This document shows, in pieces, positions 36,941-42,858 of a stretch of DNA of 42,858 bases. The stretch's first letter is position 1, and each line of letters begins with the position of its first letter. Origin of the DNA: Geodermatophilus chilensis. GTDB lineage: Bacteria > Actinomycetota > Actinomycetes > Mycobacteriales > Geodermatophilaceae. A program made the translations under genes and the position numbers. The notes under the pieces were generated by a model. It was not told the origin of the DNA. It did not search any database and was given only the letters and a program-made list of their open reading frames with translations. The stretch lies in the NCBI RefSeq assembly GCF_002802985.1, contig NZ_NVPT01000020.1, positions 1 to 42,858 on the forward strand, read 5' to 3'.

Positions 36941-36956
36941 GCGGGCGGGTACACGG

Positions 36957-36998
36957 TGGGCGCGGCCGGGATCGAACCGGCGACCGCTCGCTTGTAAG
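36957..36998 (-). repeat. 3' half of tRNA-Val(TAC): attachment site of the right-hand element
   Basis: Read on the minus strand, this is the 3' part of a tRNA. It runs from the anticodon loop CTTACAA (anticodon TAC), through 3' stem GCGAG, variable CGGTC, and T arm GCCGG-TTCGATC-CCGGC, to acceptor strand CGCGCCC plus A. The 5' half is absent: the base just before the loop (36999) already fails to pair. This is the footprint of a tyrosine-recombinase element integrated at the anticodon loop, with the intact tRNA at the far end outside the window. It is not itself a functional tRNA. Confidence 0.75.
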
Positions 36999-37135
36999 CA
37001 GTACCGGCGTAAGCGCTGTGCTGACCTCGGAGTTTACAGGTGACCGGGGAGCGAAAGCGGCACTGTTACGTGGTCGCTCGGCGCCGGAGGGCGGACCTCG
37101 GCGGCCCAGCCCTCCTGGTGCGACGGTCAGGACGA

Positions 37136-37312
37136 CTACTGGACCTCGTCCGCCGTGTACATGCAGTTGTTCGCACAGAACCGGCGCTCGGCGGCCCAGC
37201 CCACCGGCTCGGACTGCTCGGCCACGGTGATTGCTCGTTCCCTCACCTGAAGCGGATCGCCACAGCGCGGGCAGGCGGTGTCGGTCGGGCGGACGCGGGT
37301 GTTGTTCTGCAT
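37136..37312 (-). CDS. Small zinc-ribbon-like protein
   Basis: This 58-residue protein has two Cys pairs, ACPRCGDPL near residue 14 and FCANNCMY near 50, a likely single zinc site of C2-C2 type with an uneven second pair (CxxxC). I know no function, and such mini-proteins are common in actinobacterial prophage-like islands. The ATG at 37312 gives the compact form. An ATG at 37384 would add 24 residues without recognisable pattern. It is the gene nearest to the attachment site. Confidence 0.5.
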   Translation of the reverse strand: MQNNTRVRPTDTACPRCGDPLQVRERAITVAEQSEPVGWAAERRFCANNCMYTADEVQ

Positions 37313-37578
37313 CTTGGGCACACTACTGGTGACCTGACGGCACCGTTCCGTTACTCCGGTCCCAATCTGAGTCGGTCGCCGCATGGGGCGCTGCCCCTCC
37401 CAGGCGGGTCCTGTCTCAATCGTTCAGACACGCGGTGTATCTGATTCAGTCACAATCGGTGACCTTCGTCTCTGTTGATGGTCGGTGGCCGCGGGCACGA
37501 TCGAGGGCGGCCCCGCCCGGTGCGTGACCACCTGAGCGGGGCCTTGATCCCCAACCCCGCACGAGAGTCGAGGACCCA
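37313..37578. promoter_or_regulatory. Divergent intergenic region of the island
   Basis: This 266-bp non-coding stretch separates two divergent small genes. It is less GC-rich than the rest and holds short inverted repeats such as TGTCT...AGACA near 37407-37426 and CTGATTCAG near 37441. Such a region is where a prophage-type regulatory switch would be expected. No specific promoter or repressor gene is identified. Confidence 0.3.
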
Positions 37579-37863
37579 ATGAGCACCGTAGACACCACCC
37601 ACACCCCCGCCGATGCCGTCGCCGCGGTGCAGCAGCTCGCGGACGACCGTGACCGCCTCCTCGGGCTGCTCGCCGACGTCCTCGCCGGCCACGTACAGAC
37701 CAGCTGCGACGACACGGCGCTGATCCTGCTGTCCGCCGAGGCGCTGGACGGGATCAGGGCCGCGCTGGAGACCCGCTGTGCGACCTGCGGGGAGCTCACG
37801 TGGCGGCCCGGCCCGTGCGACCTGTGCACGTTGGGCCAGCTGGACGCGAGCTCAGCGGCCTGA
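37579..37863 (+). CDS. Small protein with C-terminal zinc-site Cys pairs
   Basis: This 94-residue protein is helical and acidic over residues 1-65 (AVQQLADDRDRLLGLLADVLAG). It is followed by RCATCGELTWRPGPCDLC, whose two CxxC pairs suggest a zinc ribbon. No family is recognised. GAGGAC lies 5 nt before the ATG. It is the only gene of the island on the plus strand, and it is convergent with the next small gene 16 bp away. Confidence 0.6.
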   Translation: MSTVDTTHTPADAVAAVQQLADDRDRLLGLLADVLAGHVQTSCDDTALILLSAEALDGIRAALETRCATCGELTWRPGPCDLCTLGQLDASSAA

Positions 37864-37879
37864 CCCCGGCCGGCGCGGC

Positions 37880-38146
37880 TCAGCGCGGGAAGAACCGCAG
37901 CCGCGCGGGTTCGGGTGCGTCGATGCCGGCGCCGATGCGGCGGACGAGCTGCATGACCTCGTCCGCGGCGAACACGCTCAGCCCTTGGTCCTTGGCGTCG
38001 TCGAACCATGCCCGTGCGACCGTCCGGGTGGCCTGGGCCAGCGGGACTCCGCGCTCGTCGCGGACGGCGAGGATCGCACGGACCACGGCCGGGGTCAGCT
38101 CACGCTCGAGGTCGGCGAGGCGCTGGGGGCGCTGCCGGAAGGTCAT
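37880..38146 (-). CDS. Small hypothetical phage-island protein
   Basis: This 88-residue helical protein starts with MTFRQRPQRLADLERELTP and contains AILAVRDERGVPLAQATRTVARAWFDDA. The pattern of two or three amphipathic helices without Cys suggests a small soluble protein. I cannot name a family. The ATG at 38146 was preferred to a longer form reaching into the strong hairpin at 38183-38223. It is separated from the capsid operon by that hairpin. Confidence 0.5.
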   Translation of the reverse strand: MTFRQRPQRLADLERELTPAVVRAILAVRDERGVPLAQATRTVARAWFDDAKDQGLSVFAADEVMQLVRRIGAGIDAPEPARLRFFPR

Positions 38147-38475
38147 GTGTCCAGCATGGCCCCGGCCGCCGGGACCGGGCACGCACCGGGCCCCGCCGTC
38201 ATCACGACGGCGGGGCCCGGTGCTGTGTGGGTGGGTGCCCCGGCCCGGCGGGCGGCGACGACGACAGAGGCCGCCCGCCGGGTGGGTTGTGCCCGGGGCC
38301 CGCCCGCGCGGCACGCACCACGCACGCGGACGCCCCCGGGTCGTACCCCGCGGCGCTGGACGGATCGCCGGGGGGCTGAAGGATCCCCTCCCCGACCATC
38401 GATCCCGCGGCCCCCGACTGATGGATGCCGAGACCGAAGGGGCGCAGGTGACGTTGACGCCGCGGAGGACTCCTG
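38147..38475. other. Gene-free stretch with a strong hairpin
   Basis: Between two minus-strand genes there are 329 bp in which I see no supportable gene. Open frames exist, but they lack start signals and run through the 18-bp stem at 38183-38223. The remainder is proline/glycine-codon-like GC-rich sequence without repeats that I could define. Confidence 0.5.
38183..38223. terminator. Hairpin with an 18-bp perfect stem and 5-nt loop
   Basis: GCACCGGGCCCCGCCGTC (38183-38200) is followed by loop ATCAC and its exact complement (38206-38223). It lies downstream of the capsid gene cluster on the minus strand and upstream of the next small gene. It probably ends the structural transcript. Confidence 0.65.
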
Positions 38476-38706
38476 TCAGTCGCCGGAGCCGAGCCCGGCC
38501 CCGCCGACCGCGACGCCGAGCACCTGCGTCCCGTCGGCCAGGTCGGGCGTGACCGCCTTCACCGCCGCGGCCCGGTCCTTCGCGCGGACCCGGTGGACCG
38601 TGCGGTGCCCGTTGGGCGCCTCGGTGAGCACCTCGAACACCTCCCCGGACTCGTCGGTCTGCGTCTGCCGGTCGCCGGACTCCGGCGCCTTCGTCCTGCT
38701 CGCCAT
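38476..38706 (-). CDS. Small protein downstream of the capsid gene
   Basis: This 76-residue acidic protein starts MASRTKAPESGDRQTQTDE and has a central beta-like segment FEVLTEAPNGHRTVHRVRAK, then AAAVKAVTPDLADGTQVLGVA. The position right after a capsid gene fits a small head-associated or decoration protein, but no family match is claimed. AGAGG lies 8 nt before the ATG at 38706. The gap to the capsid stop is 11 bp, so the two share a transcript. Confidence 0.6.
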   Translation of the reverse strand: MASRTKAPESGDRQTQTDESGEVFEVLTEAPNGHRTVHRVRAKDRAAAVKAVTPDLADGTQVLGVAVGGAGLGSGD

Positions 38707-38717
38707 GATGTGACCTC

Positions 38718-40151
38718 TCAGCCGGAGTAGTTCGTCAGACGGAACGCGTCGGGGATGAGCACGTCCGCGCCGGTCCGCCAGTGCATGTAGAACCCGCGGG
38801 CGCCGATCGGTGTCCGCCCGGGACCCATGAGGTGGGGGATCACCTCGACGGTCGTACCGATCCTGTCCACGATGGCGTACTGCGTGAAGTCCCCGCTCAG
38901 CAGCGCATAGTCGGGGGAGGTGGCGGTCAGGGCGCCGTCCATGTGCGAGTTCTCCACCACCTGCCAGCCGGCCATCCGCGGCACCGGCCCGGAGTCGTCC
39001 ACCAGGCTGTCATTCAGCCCCGCGGCCACCGGCAGCTGCCGGAAGCCGTTGAGCACGCTCAAGTTGCACATGAACCGCGCCCGGGGGCGCCACCGCGCCG
39101 GCAGGGCGGCCTGGTTGGCGAACACGTCGGCCGCGGCCAGCGCGTTGGTGCCGGTGGCGAGCACCGACCCGGGCACCGCCGACACCGCGGTGATCACGCC
39201 GCGGGGCTGGCCGGTGCCGGTGCCGAGGGTGAACGCGGCCGCCTCCAGCTGGGCCTTCGCGTCGGTGAACAGCGCGCCGATCTGCTGGCCGAGGTCGGCC
39301 GAGTCCTCGAACAGCTCGATCGACACCGGCACGAACGCCGCACCCTTGTGGACGGTCACGGCCGGGTTGAGCAGGCTCGGGCTGTCGTCGCCGACCTCGG
39401 CCAGCTCCGCATCCCACGAGGCGGTGACCCCGGCGCTGGTGACGAACCGCTTCTCACTGCTCGCGGTCGTTGTCACCCGCGCCACCTGCCGCATGGGGCT
39501 CGCCGACCCGGCCGAGCTGATCAAGATCGCCGGGTCGAGCTCGTACGGCACCAGGTAGCCACCCGCGCCGGGCACGCCCAGCGACATGGCCCGGGACAGG
39601 GTGGACACGCGGCGCACCGCGGCCCGCTCCTCCGGGCTCCACTCGTAGTGCCCGTGCTGGGGATCGGCCAGCCAGCGCAGGAAGGCGCTCCTGTAGGCCG
39701 GCTGGGACAGCTCCACCGTGGCCCGGGCCAGACCGGCGGCCGGGTCGTCGTCGGCCTCCACGTCCACCGTCACCCGCTGCCGGACGGCGTCGGGCAGGGC
39801 CTCACACCGCTCGATCGCCGTGAGGGCCTGACCGCGCAGCACCCCGGGCTTGACCCCGGCGCGCAGCTCGGCCACCGGCTCGGCCCACGGGTCGCCGGTG
39901 AACTTCCCGGCGCGGGCGGGGGTCCTCGGCGGGACGCCGTAGTCGTCGCCGCCGGACATGACGGTCGCAGTCTTGGAACGGCCCGCGACCACCTGGGCCA
40001 GCGCGTCCTCCCGCTCGAGCTTGTACAGCTCGGCGTGTGCCTCGCGGCTCCGGGCCTCCTGGGCGGCCGTCAGCCGCTCATAGCCGGCGAGCCGGATCGT
40101 TTCGTGCCGCAGCTCGCCGATCCGGCGGTCGCGGTCTTCCTGGGTCAACAC
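38718..40151 (-). CDS. HK97-fold phage major capsid protein
   Basis: This 477-residue protein has an N-terminal helical region (MLTQEDRDRRIGELRHETIR and following, about 1-195) that may serve as a scaffold/delta domain. The HK97 core starts near SLGVPGAGGYLVPYELDPAIL. Core features are SPMRQVARV, the E-loop/strand region VTASWDAELAEVGDD, KGAAFVPVSIELFEDSADLG, TLGTGTGQPRGVITAV and the C-terminal YALLSGDFTQYAIVDRIGTTVEV with GFYMHWRTGADV. The length matches phiRv-type capsids of about 475 residues. No protease gene lies next to it, so maturation of the N-terminal region is an open question. The GTG at 40151 has AGGAGGG 8 nt upstream. Confidence 0.9.
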   Translation of the reverse strand: MLTQEDRDRRIGELRHETIRLAGYERLTAAQEARSREAHAELYKLEREDALAQVVAGRSKTATVMSGGDDYGVPPRTPARAGKFTGDPWAEPVAELRAGVKPGVLRGQALTAIERCEALPDAVRQRVTVDVEADDDPAAGLARATVELSQPAYRSAFLRWLADPQHGHYEWSPEERAAVRRVSTLSRAMSLGVPGAGGYLVPYELDPAILISSAGSASPMRQVARVTTTASSEKRFVTSAGVTASWDAELAEVGDDSPSLLNPAVTVHKGAAFVPVSIELFEDSADLGQQIGALFTDAKAQLEAAAFTLGTGTGQPRGVITAVSAVPGSVLATGTNALAAADVFANQAALPARWRPRARFMCNLSVLNGFRQLPVAAGLNDSLVDDSGPVPRMAGWQVVENSHMDGALTATSPDYALLSGDFTQYAIVDRIGTTVEVIPHLMGPGRTPIGARGFYMHWRTGADVLIPDAFRLTNYSG

Positions 40152-40369
40152 AGGGGGTCCCTCCTACGGGGAGTCGGAATGGGGCGCGCGTCATCGCTGC
40201 GCCTCTCGATCCGGCGGCCCCGCGGGAGGCTGGACGCCACATGGGCGCCACGGCTCCGGCGGCTCGGACGCCCCATGGGGCGCCCTGGTCGGCGGTGCAC
40301 TGCCGGTCCGCCGACCCCTGGGCCGGAGACCTCGCCGTGATCATAGACGAGGGCGCCGACAGGACCAGG

Positions 40370-40389
40370 TGGGGGCGGATCCGCCCCCA
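40370..40389. terminator. Perfect 20-bp palindrome between terminase-type genes and capsid
   Basis: The half-site is TGGGGGCGGA, and both halves meet without a loop. It lies 11 bp after the stop of the small gene at 40401 and about 220 bp before the capsid start on the minus strand. It could end or attenuate transcription into the capsid gene. The nearby CGCCCCATGGGGCG (about 40267-40280) is another palindrome. Confidence 0.45.
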
Positions 40390-40400
40390 ACCGGTGAGCC

Positions 40401-40586
40401 CTACACGTCGTCGTCGTCGGCGGCCAGCTCCAACAGGGCGACCTCGGCCGACAGACTGACCATGCGCTCGGCCATGACGACGGCCAGCTCCCTCGCCCGC
40501 GGCCCGTCCCCGGCGGCCAGGGCCTCGGTCATCTCGTGCACCAGGGCCTCGCCGTCGGGCGGCAGCCACTCCACCGGCCCCGTCAC
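40401..40586 (-). CDS. Small acidic hypothetical protein
   Basis: This 61-residue acidic helical protein (EALVHEMTEALAAGDGPRAREL and MAERMVSLSAEVALLELAADDDDV, read in parts) has no known family. The GTG at 40586 overlaps the stop of the upstream gene by 4 bp (GTGA), so it is coupled to it. The run of Asp at the C-terminus is unusual. It ends the terminase-like operon before a palindromic terminator. Confidence 0.6.
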   Translation of the reverse strand: MTGPVEWLPPDGEALVHEMTEALAAGDGPRARELAVVMAERMVSLSAEVALLELAADDDDV

Positions 40587-40915
40587 CGTCGTTCCCTCCG
40601 TCGCCGTTCGACGTACTCGATCCATTCCGCCCACGGCCCGACCGTCGGGTCCGGGGTGCGCGCCGGTGTCGGGAGCTGCCACGGGCACTCGCCCGGCATG
40701 TAGGACCAGTGCACGGCCCGGAACACGTCCAGGCTCGACACCCCGGCGGCGGCGCACCACGCACGCCACGCGGCCCGCCACCGTTGGAACCGCTCGCGGT
40801 CGTTCTCGCCGGCCGCCACCTCCTCGGCCGTCCGCGGATAGACGCGCATCCCCGGCGGCACCAGGCGGACGAACTCCTCCGGGCTCAGCGGCTTCCGCCG
40901 CCTCGTCGACTTCAC
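40583..40915 (-). CDS. Hypothetical phage-island protein
   Basis: This 110-residue basic protein begins MKSTRRRKPLSPEEFVRLVP and contains RERFQRWRAAWRAWCAAAGVSSLDVFRAVHWSY in parts. A Trp-rich helical middle and a C-terminal EWIEYVERRRRERR are notable. No family is recognised. Its ATG overlaps the stop of the small-terminase-like gene (ATGA at 40912-40915), and its own stop overlaps the next start, so three genes form a tight operon. Interaction with nucleic acid is possible from its charge only. Confidence 0.6.
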   Translation of the reverse strand: MKSTRRRKPLSPEEFVRLVPPGMRVYPRTAEEVAAGENDRERFQRWRAAWRAWCAAAGVSSLDVFRAVHWSYMPGECPWQLPTPARTPDPTVGPWAEWIEYVERRRRERR

Positions 40916-41256
40916 GACTGCACCCCGTACACGCCGCGGGCCGCGCGGCGCTGCAACCGCGGCCGGGCCTCCGGCGCCTCGTCGTCGTCCTCGTAGGGCA
41001 CCCGCAGCGCGGCGATCAGCCGGGCCAACGTGATGCGCTGCTGCCGGGCCTCGACCAGCAGCCCCCGGGCCCGCGGCCAGTCGGCCAGGTCCACCGCGGC
41101 GACCTCGGCCTCCAGCCGCTCCAGGACGTCGGCGGTGCGGCAGGCGGCCAACAGCACGGCCCGCTCGTGCTCGGCCAGGTCGTAGTCGGCGGTGACCTTC
41201 CGCCAGAGCCGTCGGCCAGCCGGTGCGAGGCCGCTCACGGGCGATTTGGCGCTCAT
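40912..41256 (-). CDS. Probable phage terminase small subunit
   Basis: This 114-residue protein has the order GLAPAGRRLWRKVTADYDL, HERAVLLAACRTADVLERLEAEV and LLVEARQQRITLARLIAAL, read in parts, plus a basic C-terminal tail. The arrangement of helices and the EARQQR-LARL block match the small terminases (P27-like) I know from actinobacterial phages. Those proteins recognise viral DNA for packaging. The large subunit gene, which normally follows, is absent. The ATG at 41256 has GGGAGGA at good spacing. The gene starts the three-gene operon leading to the capsid. Confidence 0.6.
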   Translation of the reverse strand: MSAKSPVSGLAPAGRRLWRKVTADYDLAEHERAVLLAACRTADVLERLEAEVAAVDLADWPRARGLLVEARQQRITLARLIAALRVPYEDDDEAPEARPRLQRRAARGVYGVQS

Positions 41257-41383
41257 GGGTCCTCCCAGGACGGTTTCAGGTCTGTGTGTGTGGTTCGCGG
41301 GACCGGCGGGGTCGGCCGGGGCGCGCGTGATCACGTCGCGACCCCACCCCCCGGGGGGCTCCTGTGCACCCCGGGCCGGTTGG

Positions 41384-41731
41384 TCAGTGGCCGGGCCGGC
41401 GCGCCCACCGGTCCGCGGCGAGGCTGTCGGCCTGCTCGGCGGGGACGCGGCGAGAGCGGCGGCGGCCGAGGCCAGCACGGCAGTCGGGACACCGGGCGTC
41501 CCGCCGCAGTCGCGGGTGCCGGTCGAGTGGCGCGTAGCAGGTCGGGCAGCACGCCCCGAGGTGTCGGCGGGTGGCCTGGGCGTCCTGGGACCCGAGGTCG
41601 GCCGTGTCGGGCCCGAGGGAGCGTCCGAGGTCCGGCGGGTGGTGGCCCGGTTGCCCGGCGTCCTCCGGCTGGGGCTGCTGGGCCTCGCGCTCGGCTCGGG
41701 CTCGGCGATTACCTCTTGGTGATCTTGTCAT
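41384..41731 (-). CDS. Small protein with two Cys pairs
   Basis: This 115-residue protein has a Gln/Arg-rich low-complexity N-terminus (MTRSPRGNRRARAEREAQQ) and then CCPTCYAPLDRHPRLRRDARCPDCRAG in parts. The two CxxC pairs are spaced by about 17 residues, as in zinc ribbons. It could be a small endonuclease-like or DNA-binding factor, but no HNH motif is complete. GAAGGA lies about 9 nt before the ATG at 41731. It precedes the small-terminase-like gene by about 130 bp. Confidence 0.5.
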   Translation of the reverse strand: MTRSPRGNRRARAEREAQQPQPEDAGQPGHHPPDLGRSLGPDTADLGSQDAQATRRHLGACCPTCYAPLDRHPRLRRDARCPDCRAGLGRRRSRRVPAEQADSLAADRWARRPGH

Positions 41732-42132
41732 CGTCGGCGTCCTTCGTAGTCAGCTGTCCGAAATCGGACAGCTGTCGTCGCTGTCGCTGTCGTGGTCGCT
41801 GTCGTGGTCGTCGTGATCGGCTGCGTGGCAAGTCGCTGTCGTCGTCGCTCGGTCGCTGTCGCACTCGCGTCGCGCTGCGCTGGTGCTGCTCGCTGCGAGA
41901 TCCAGGTCTCGTCGAGACATCGATCTCGCAGCGGCTCGCGCTGCTGCTGGTGCTGGTCGCGCTGCTCGTCGTGCTGCTGCTGCTGCGCGTCGTCGTCGTC
42001 GTGGTGTCTCGTGTCGTCGGCGTGTCGCCGTGATGTGCCTCGCCTGCCCGCTGTGCGGGCCGCTGCCTGTCCGTGGGGTGCACGCCGGTACCTGGGGCGC
42101 CAGCCGCCCCTCTACTTCCGTCACGTGACGCA
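41732..42132. repeat. GTC-rich low-complexity region with palindromes
   Basis: These 401 bp show no convincing gene in any frame, although frames stay open and would encode Ser/Thr/Asp/Arg-only strings. The sequence is built of GTC, GCT and GTG triplets, with a tandem 12-mer GCTGTCGTGGTC repeated at 41786-41809. A 24-bp palindrome at 41751-41774 has half-site CAGCTGTCCGA around AA. A hairpin at 41892-41932 has outer arms GCTGCGAGAT and ATCTCGCAGC. A packaging site, replication origin or operator is possible, given the position upstream of the small-terminase-like gene. The function is not shown by sequence alone. Confidence 0.55.
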
Positions 42133-42456
42133 TCACCGGGCGCCCCTGGTCTCGTCGGGCCGCATCCACCCGCACGTCGGGCAGCGCAGGCGGGCCTCCC
42201 GGGCCTCCGCCCAGGCGATCAGCTCGGCCACGAACCGCGCCGCGGCCCGCAGGTTGTCGATCTCGAACGCCCGCGCGCACTCCGGCGGATTCAGCTCGGC
42301 CGGGTCGTACTCGGCCATCAGGTGCGGGATGTCCTCGTAGCCGCCGTAGAGGCCGACGACCTGCACGGCCCTGGCGATGCCGGTGTAGAGGTCCGACCGG
42401 GCGCGGCGCTCCTCCTCCGCCGGGTCCCGCGGCGTGCGCGGCCTGCGGGCGGTCAC
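42133..42456 (-). CDS. Hypothetical phage-island protein
   Basis: This 107-residue protein has a basic N-terminus (MTARRPRTPRDPAEEERRA), a central SDLYTGIARAVQVVGLYGGYEDIPHLM in parts, NPPECARAFEIDNLRAAARFVAELIAWAEA and a C-terminal LRCPTCGWMRPD. Only one CxxC pair is present. No family is recognised. The GTG at 42456 overlaps the stop of the upstream winged-helix gene (GTGA), so the two are coupled. Confidence 0.6.
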   Translation of the reverse strand: MTARRPRTPRDPAEEERRARSDLYTGIARAVQVVGLYGGYEDIPHLMAEYDPAELNPPECARAFEIDNLRAAARFVAELIAWAEAREARLRCPTCGWMRPDETRGAR

Positions 42457-42775
42457 AGCTCGACCCCGGGCCGGGGGTCGGTGAGGACCACAACGCGGGT
42501 GCCGTCGGCGGTGGCCCCCCGCTTCACCCATCCGGCCGCGACCAACGCAGTGAGGCTCCGCAGCACCATGCTGTGACTGGTCTCGGCCGCCTCGGCGAGG
42601 TCGAGTGTCGGCGGCATCGGGATCGCCGTGTCGGTGTCGACGCCGAAGTCGGTCAGCCGGGCGGCGACGACCTTGACGTCGCGCGGCAGGCCGCTGTCGG
42701 CGACCGCCCGGCGCCACTGGACGGCGGGGAGGACGGGCAGCGGGTCGGGCTCGACGGCGGCGGGCGGTCGCCGAC
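42453..42775 (-). CDS. Winged-helix DNA-binding protein, 5' truncated by contig end
   Basis: The last 107 codons of a protein are present. They include WRRAVADSGLPRDVKVVAARL and then LDLAEAAETSHSMVLRSLTALVAAGWVKRG, followed by ADGTRVVVLTDP. The second part is a helix-turn-helix plus wing as in MarR/DnaD-like or replication-associated proteins. It is cut at 42775, where adapter sequence begins, so the N-terminus and exact family are unknown. A regulator or replication initiator of the island is plausible. Confidence 0.6.
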
Positions 42776-42858
42776 CTGTCTCCTATACCCATCTCCGAGC
42801 CCACGAGACCGTACTACAACTCGTATGCACTCGTCTGCCTGAAAAAAAAAACAGTCTA
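42776..42858 (+). other. Sequencing adapter read-through (non-genomic)
   Basis: From 42776 the sequence follows the Nextera read-2 adapter: CTGTCTC, then a copy of TTATACACATCTCC with two base differences, then GAGCCCACGAGAC exact to 42809. Next come an index-like CGTACTAC, a degraded copy of the flow-cell sequence (CTCGTATGC) and a poly-A run at 42842-42851. Frames through it give the familiar artefact peptide CLLYPSPSPRD. This part should be trimmed. Confidence 0.95.

What the first reader, a model, noticed from the sequence alone, without database searches (positions are those of the whole stretch)
36957..42775. Tailless capsid island at tRNA-Val: possible capsid-forming satellite or phiRv-like element
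The sequence shows a complete HK97-type capsid gene, a likely small terminase and several tiny coupled genes. No portal, prohead protease, large terminase or tail gene is visible, and the island starts at a tRNA-Val half-gene. Established knowledge: the M. tuberculosis elements phiRv1/phiRv2 are small tailless prophage-like islands with an HK97 capsid, and phiRv2 uses a tRNA-Val site. Capsid-forming satellites also pair their own capsid with helper-phage tails. Inference: this is an actinobacterial island of that kind, stripped even of an adjacent protease.
Basis: partly seen in the sequence, partly recalled or inferred. Interest (0 to 1): 0.75.

Follow-up and report, generated by a model that had tools for sequence, protein, structure and literature searches.

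The report
Tailless phage satellite carrying own capsid
A soil actinobacterium carries a roughly 9-kb mobile island that has a phage head gene but no tail, DNA-pumping motor, portal or head-maturing protease that we could find, so it probably spreads by borrowing those parts from a helper phage.

Summary
Window 36955-42775 is one end of an island in tRNA-Val(TAC). The other end is contig C204 of the same genome, with the intact tRNA, a tyrosine integrase and a replication-type gene. In a sister island the genes at the two contig ends are adjacent, so the island is about 9.1 kb with practically nothing missing (inferred from gene order). It encodes an HK97 capsid protein (MCP) and a small terminase. 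No TerL, HK97-type portal or S78 protease was found in it or in the host genome. Of 29 mapped neighbourhoods of related MCPs, 12 are such islands with an intact MCP, 8 of them without protease. Eleven of the 12 island MCPs group apart from 15 prophage and 6 phage MCPs (support 94/97, not starred) and share a motif that the other 22 rows lack. Plan and size match phiRv-like candidate PICIs; the cf-PICI definition is not met. Most likely it is a satellite that makes its own head protein and borrows portal, TerL, protease and tail. No transfer or particle has been shown. New variant of a known kind.

The parts
36955..36998 (-). attR: 3' 44 nt of tRNA-Val(TAC), the native end of the split host tRNA
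   Evidence: 44 of 44 nt identical to the tRNA in four same-genus loci (three of them confirmed by ARAGORN); in G023 flank gene and tRNA form one match
37136..37312 (-). 58-aa Cys-rich protein, no confident family
   Evidence: weak hits below cut-off only
37579..37863 (+). 94-aa protein; relatives in sister islands L118 and L119
   Evidence: E 2e-5 and 3e-5
37880..38146 (-). 88-aa protein, no family
38476..38706 (-). Z, 76 aa, right behind the MCP in all four Geodermatophilaceae islands; predicted beta-beta-alpha-beta
38718..40151 (-). HK97-type major capsid protein, 477 aa, with a pro-domain of about 189 aa
40401..40574 (-). 57-aa protein, no family
40583..40915 (-). 110-aa Trp-rich protein, overlaps TerS by 4 nt; a similar small Trp-rich protein follows TerS in L011 and L012 (by position; those two match each other)
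40912..41238 (-). small terminase subunit (TerS)
   Evidence: phrog_1496 E 1.1e-16
41751..41774 (.). 24-bp perfect palindrome upstream of TerS with the same core in L011; candidate operator or packaging site (inference)
42133..42456 (-). 107-aa protein with a CPTC motif, no family (a 119-aa reading was scanned)
42453..42775 (-). winged-HTH protein, 5' end off the contig; its relative in L118 directly follows the relative of C204's replication-type gene
42776..42858 (.). sequencing adapter, not genome
   Evidence: letters; adapter sequence recalled

Best explanation
It is an integrated phage satellite of the phiRv-like / candidate-PICI kind. Shown by sequence: integration in tRNA-Val, integrase, replication-type and HTH genes, TerS, an MCP with its pro-domain kept, and no other head, motor or tail gene found. 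Inferred: on infection by (or induction of) a helper phage the island excises and replicates; its TerS steers the helper's TerL to island DNA; small heads form with the island MCP, alone or mixed with helper capsid protein as SaPIbov5 Ccm does; the helper's protease cuts the pro-domain near the RAM/SL boundary; helper portal and tail complete the particle.
For: Integration: the tRNA half matches tRNAs beside the same host gene in relatives, and C204 carries the intact tRNA plus integrase. Completeness: gene adjacency in L118. Absence. Same plan with different integrases and sites: integrase in 12 of 12 intact-MCP islands (7 tyrosine and 4 serine, L046); att-type repeats found in 5 of the 12: 10,345 bp (tRNA-Ala), 9,537 bp (tRNA-Lys), 9,910 bp, 9,998 bp and 14,695 bp (tRNA-Arg, L075). 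MCP lineage and motif. Boundary MSL kept in 6 of 8 protease-less MCPs. MCP dN 0.29, dS 0.65 between window and L011. Precedent: Ccm, a satellite-encoded MCP homologue with delta domain (PMC8569155, PMC5052747); PICI PmCI172 also has an MCP homologue and makes small heads (PMC6092414 passages).
Against: No transfer, particle or helper was seen. TerS was detected by profile in only 5 of 12 islands, and three of those were in the profile's own training set. TerS dN and dS are about equal on 92-93 codons: no sign of selection. L075 falls outside the MCP group; all 12 as one clade is rejected, p-AU 9e-130. The 11-row group is not starred (94/97). Pro-domain length differs weakly (p 0.034, kinship not corrected). 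L057 has a broken MCP, so some islands decay.
Confidence: 0.72

Rival explanations
1. Anti-phage island: the MCP chiefly poisons helper head assembly (a Ccm-like decoy), with little or no transfer of the island itself.
For: Expression of Ccm alone lowers helper titre (PMC5052747 passages). An MCP without protease could co-assemble. TerS was not detected in 7 of 12 islands.
Against: Integrases and, in 5 of 12, att-type repeats are kept, and the window island keeps TerS and a replication-type gene. These fit a mobile element better. Ccm itself does both.
Confidence: 0.13
2. Decayed prophage: a normal temperate phage that lost its tail, portal and motor genes and is now inert.
For: The MCP family is also found in full prophages (14 of 29 neighbourhoods). 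L057 has a broken MCP.
Against: The same reduced plan recurs at 9.5-10.3 kb in several families with different integrases and sites. Eleven island MCPs group together apart from prophages. MCP dN is below dS. Independent decay would not keep the same genes.
Confidence: 0.08
3. Ordinary prophage cut by the contig end, with terL, portal and tail in an unassembled middle.
For: No read joins C204 and the window; the assembly has 374 contigs.
Against: Gene order in L118 leaves practically no room; no PF04860, PF20441, PF03354 or PF04586 match in the whole genome.
Confidence: 0.03
4. Domesticated shell: the MCP forms an encapsulin-like compartment or gene transfer particle serving the host.
For: An HK97-fold protein without portal or motor could do so (recalled knowledge of encapsulins).
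Against: Carried on integrase islands with TerS and a kept pro-domain; scattered distribution (3 of 112 family genomes).
Confidence: 0.04

Closest known systems
phiRv1/phiRv2 and other candidate PICIs of Mycobacterium (PMC10654092; PMC3986857)
   Same: Integrase plus MCP in a tailless island; listed at 9.3 and 10.8 kb, phiRv2 in tRNA-Val; phiBN42_1 listed with integrase, excisionase, primase, prohead protease and MCP (passages)
   Different: Geodermatophilaceae host, no prohead protease, extra small genes such as Z. Direct sequence comparison with phiRv not run.
Capsid-forming PICIs (cf-PICI)
   Same: Satellite-type island with its own HK97 MCP and TerS
   Different: cf-PICIs also bring protease, portal, connectors, TerL and HNH (PMC10690885 passage); none of protease, portal or TerL is found here
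SaPIbov5 and its Ccm capsid homologue (PMC8569155, PMC5052747)
   Same: An island encodes an MCP homologue with delta domain and relies on the helper for other head parts
   Different: Ccm is 355 residues and sits at pentons of a mixed T = 4 shell; here the MCP is 477 aa and its role is unknown. No sequence comparison with Ccm was run.
Gordonia and Mycobacterium phages Madeline, Eyre, Brujita, Sbash, Mcklovin
   Same: Related MCP: 36% identity to Madeline over 99% of the window MCP
   Different: Full tailed phages with TerL, portal and protease around the MCP

Membership tests
candidate PICI / phiRv-like island | phage-like region with integrase and MCP (definition in PMC10654092) | tested here: met
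   PF00589 E 1.8e-26 on C204; PF05065 E 1.3e-35; C204 link
candidate PICI / phiRv-like island | prohead protease next to the MCP (phiBN42_1-type list) | tested here: not met
candidate PICI / phiRv-like island | sequence kinship to phiRv1/phiRv2 capsids | not tested
   phiRv sequences not fetched
cf-PICI | own MCP and TerS | tested here: met
cf-PICI | own head maturation protease | tested here: not met
   six-frame profile; PF04586 absent from G000
cf-PICI | own portal | tested here: not met
   PF04860 absent from G000
cf-PICI | own TerL | tested here: not met
   PF20441 and PF03354 absent from G000
cf-PICI | head-tail connectors and HNH | tested here: inconclusive
   no such Pfam or PHROGs hit in the ten window ORFs scanned nor, for Pfam, in 4 of 5 called C204 ORFs; no hit of the Gordonia adaptor or stopper by phmmer; no dedicated profiles used
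PICI / satellite | helper-dependent induction, packaging and transfer | not testable with these tools
   needs cultures and phage
Ccm-type capsid redirection | MCP homologue with delta domain in an island without own protease or portal | tested here: met
Ccm-type capsid redirection | incorporation into helper capsids and smaller heads | not testable with these tools
   needs particles
ordinary prophage | TerL, portal and tail genes in the element | tested here: not met
   tail genes judged from the gene list only

The most novel reading that the evidence does not exclude
The island MCPs are a satellite-dedicated capsid lineage of Actinobacteria that builds T = 3 (or smaller) HK97 shells around a unit-length 9-10 kb genome, and has repeatedly handed its maturation protease over to the helper while keeping the cleavage site. 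That would be the missing small tailed-phage head, reached by satellites rather than phages.
Probability: 0.22. Interest if true: 0.75.

Novelty: new variant of a known kind. Interest (0 to 1): 0.5.

Why it matters
Satellites with a capsid gene are known, but the reference kind (cf-PICI) brings a full head kit. Here a lineage found in several actinobacterial families keeps the MCP, sometimes with TerS, and in 8 of 12 cases not even the protease, though pro-domain and boundary motif are mostly kept. That makes two questions testable: whether a helper can mature a satellite's head in trans, and whether 9-10 kb HK97-fold heads exist (predicted T = 3 mean 11.78 kb, range 8.1-17.1 kb; PMC7762592). 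It also offers environmental relatives for studying phiRv-like islands.

Tried and rejected
Viral contigs: the MCP and Z alignments found no relative (129 and 34 pattern stretches, none confirmed). Z across the class: 3 of 394 genomes at E <= 1e-3, and the two besides our own have no capsid hit in my gene calls. Z in phages: no match at E <= 1. AlphaFold of the MCP failed (mean pLDDT 35.1), so no fold search was made with it. The Z model (mean pLDDT 75.8) had no viral fold match at E <= 1e-3. The palindrome core of window and L011 was not found in 11 other loci.

Considered and rejected: ordinary prophage cut by the contig end; protease fused to the MCP as in phage REQ1 (the window MCP has no protease hit); one single loss of the protease (8 protease-less MCPs as one clade rejected, p-AU 4e-6).

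Rows left out: L057 (MCP with a stop), L059 and L062 (unclear) and L018 (weak MCP beside a portal) were not put in the tree. Weak family matches in G013, G034 and G070 (E 2e-4 to 3.4e-4) were not looked at. My notebook gives L057's length as 8,958; the right figure is 8,910.
Full report
What is there. On the minus strand, from the contig end towards the tRNA half, the window holds: a winged-HTH gene that runs off the contig, a 107-aa protein with a CPTC motif, a repeat-rich stretch with a perfect 24-bp palindrome (41751-41774), TerS, a Trp-rich 110-aa protein that overlaps TerS by 4 nt, a 57-aa protein, the MCP and a 76-aa protein Z. Three small genes follow, one of them on the plus strand, and then 44 nt of tRNA-Val. 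Gene calls come from a codon-usage script of mine trained on the window. The last 83 bases of the window look like sequencing adapter (adapter recalled).

The other end. A DNA search of the window's own genome found the tRNA half again on contig C204. C204 has an intact tRNA-Val(TAC) at 134-207, a tyrosine integrase (PF00589 E 1.8e-26) and a gene row ending in a 343-aa gene that I call replication-type from its setting; it has no confident family. In same-genus genomes the window's flank gene and an intact tRNA-Val(TAC) lie together (for example G023, one match over 1-519 of 521). C204's short host flank matches the upstream side of the tRNA over 37-42 bp in 3 of 25 loci. The C204 tRNA differs from the window half at two T-arm positions, as expected if the island brought its own 3' end (inference).

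No hidden middle. In genome G018 (L118) relatives of C204 2049-2402, C204 2399-3430 and the window HTH gene follow one another, the last two overlapping. C204 ends 16 bases into an open frame that overlaps the stop of its 343-aa gene, and the window frame runs off at 42775. So the island is 3,279 + 5,821 bp plus an unread gap that I judge to be tens of bases. This is inferred from gene order, not from a joining read.

What is missing. Profiles for S78 protease, portal and TerL (16 rows each, from prophage loci and a Gordonia phage) were run on all six frames. Eight islands (window with C204, L011, L012, L017, L048, L049, L072, L073) have none of the three at E < 0.05. Four islands (L046, L047, L050, L075), not in the training rows, have the protease only. 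Three prophage loci had all three, but they were also training rows. Whole-genome Pfam searches: portal PF04860 in 0 of 3 genomes, TerL nuclease PF20441 in 0 of 3, TerL ATPase PF03354 in 0 of 6, S78 PF04586 in 1 of 7, there (G654) on another contig than the island. These searches rang in 3 or 4 of 14 control genomes. G000 was in all four searches and had no match. Other portal or TerL families were not sought. The host thus shows no resident helper of this type.

A family of islands. The MCP matched in 8 of 112 family genomes at E <= 1e-3, 18 of 394 class genomes at E <= 1e-30 and 16 of 397 order genomes at E <= 1e-70, our own included each time; the sets overlap. I mapped 29 neighbourhoods: 12 islands with intact MCP (8 without, 4 with protease), 1 island with a broken MCP (L057), 14 full prophages with portal and protease called beside the MCP and a TerL called or in place, and 2 unclear (L059, L062). 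Two weaker family matches were also mapped: L018 (portal beside a weak MCP) and L019, a prophage that serves as the 15th prophage row. Three weaker ones were not. An integrase is present in 12 of 12 islands: 7 tyrosine and 4 serine, and L046 only in the six-frame check. Att-type repeats were found in 5 of the 12: 10,345 bp (L012, tRNA-Ala, 46-50 bp repeat), 9,537 bp (L072, tRNA-Lys, 35 bp), 9,910 bp (L046, 28 bp), 9,998 bp (L047, 21 bp, at the end of a gene that reads to me like a main sigma factor) and 14,695 bp (L075, tRNA-Arg, 22 bp); broken L057 spans 8,910 bp (tRNA-Gly, 26 bp), with no integrase found in it. In the other 6 loci no such pair was found or sought by tRNA; in L011, L048 and L073 the script listed other repeats that I did not take for att sites.

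MCP lineage. In a 33-row tree (12 islands, 15 prophages, 6 phages) 11 of the 12 island MCPs are one side of a branch (94/97, not starred). L075 sits with Gordonia and Mycobacterium phages, and all 12 as one clade is rejected (p-AU 9e-130). The 8 protease-less MCPs as one clade is rejected (p-AU 4e-6), so the protease was lost more than once or regained. The rows were found with a profile of island MCPs, so nearer relatives were favoured. The 11 share the motif P-x-x-G-x(2-3)-W/F before the boundary; none of the 21 phage and prophage MCPs nor L075 does. I noticed the motif in a subset and then checked it on all 33. All 6 phages read have a protease upstream of or fused to the MCP. The profile of four island MCPs matches solved chain 9lw6_A over 7-470 of 471 positions (E 5.5e-106), a sequence nearly identical to phage Sbash's MCP.

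Is the protease still needed? The protease-less MCPs keep a pro-domain (189 aa in the window; 171-252 in the eight), and MSL at the boundary in 6 of 8; L012 and L073 differ. That this is the cleavage site rests on recalled HK97 knowledge. Pro-domain length is shorter in islands (median 185.5, n = 12) than in 5 phages (249; REQ1 left out) or 15 prophages (199); p = 0.034 against phages and prophages together, without correction for kinship and with gene starts called automatically. I treat that as weak. MCP codon changes suggest purifying selection (dN 0.29, dS 0.65 window-L011; 0.42, 0.67 L012-L017; 0.24, 0.95 L046-L047). Z gives 0.33, 0.49. TerS shows none (0.54, 0.45 on 93 codons; 0.76, 0.74 on 92).

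Mechanism. The gene list fits a satellite that needs a helper for TerL, portal, maturation and tail. The closest experimental parallel that I read is SaPIbov5 Ccm, an MCP homologue with a delta domain that takes the pentons of small T = 4 shells (PMC8569155 abstract and passages; PMC5052747 passages). PICI PmCI172 encodes an MCP homologue and yields small heads (PMC6092414 passages). Islands of 9-10 kb fall in the length range predicted for T = 3 (mean 11.78 kb, 8.1-17.1) and below that for T = 4 (13.2-24.5) in PMC7762592 (abstract, results section part 1, passages). The same paper notes that satellite P4 (11.6 kb) uses a T = 4 shell, so length alone does not settle it.

Known or new. Candidate PICIs defined by integrase plus MCP, including phiRv1/2, are published for Mycobacterium (PMC10654092 passages; PMC3986857 passages). 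The cf-PICI definition (PMC10690885 passage; similar list in PMC13230959 passage) is not met. The listing for Geodermatophilus, prophage and satellite (20 of 639 papers shown, titles and abstract starts) showed no paper on such islands there, and the listings showed no title on a protease-less form. That library omits most subscription journals.

Noticed in passing
window 42776-42858: The contig end carries what looks like Nextera adapter sequence; an assembly artefact (adapter recalled).
   Followed up: partly
window 41751-41774; L011 12431-12456: Perfect palindromes with the same core TGTCCGA-NN-TCGGACA, some hundreds of bases upstream of TerS in two islands; candidate operator, origin or packaging site. 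Not found in 11 other loci searched.
   Followed up: partly
window 40370-40389: 20-bp perfect palindrome between the MCP and the 57-aa gene.
   Followed up: no
L118 8227-9315; L119 7382-8506: Sister islands with the same replication-type gene carry much more distant, shorter capsid-like proteins (362 aa, PF05065 E 3.3e-8; 374 aa, only phrog_10 E 0.0096), so the head gene looks exchangeable.
   Followed up: partly
L021 (OR387121.1), L022 (OR387116.1): About 11-kb records called phages of Mycolicibacterium aichiense have a TerS-like terminase, connectors, MCP and serine integrase but no annotated large terminase or portal; they look like satellites isolated from soil.
   Followed up: partly
tRNA-Val site in same-genus genomes: Copies of the tRNA half lie about 1 to 15 kb from the flank gene in several relatives (for example G001, G002, G008, G018), so the site may be an integration hot spot.
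   Followed up: no
L075 3740-18508: A 14.7-kb island in tRNA-Arg with protease, a phage-like MCP and a 1301-aa gene; apparently a separate capture of a phage head gene.
   Followed up: partly
L057 5295-14230: An 8.9-kb island-like stretch at tRNA-Gly whose MCP is broken by a stop: one such island in decay.
   Followed up: partly
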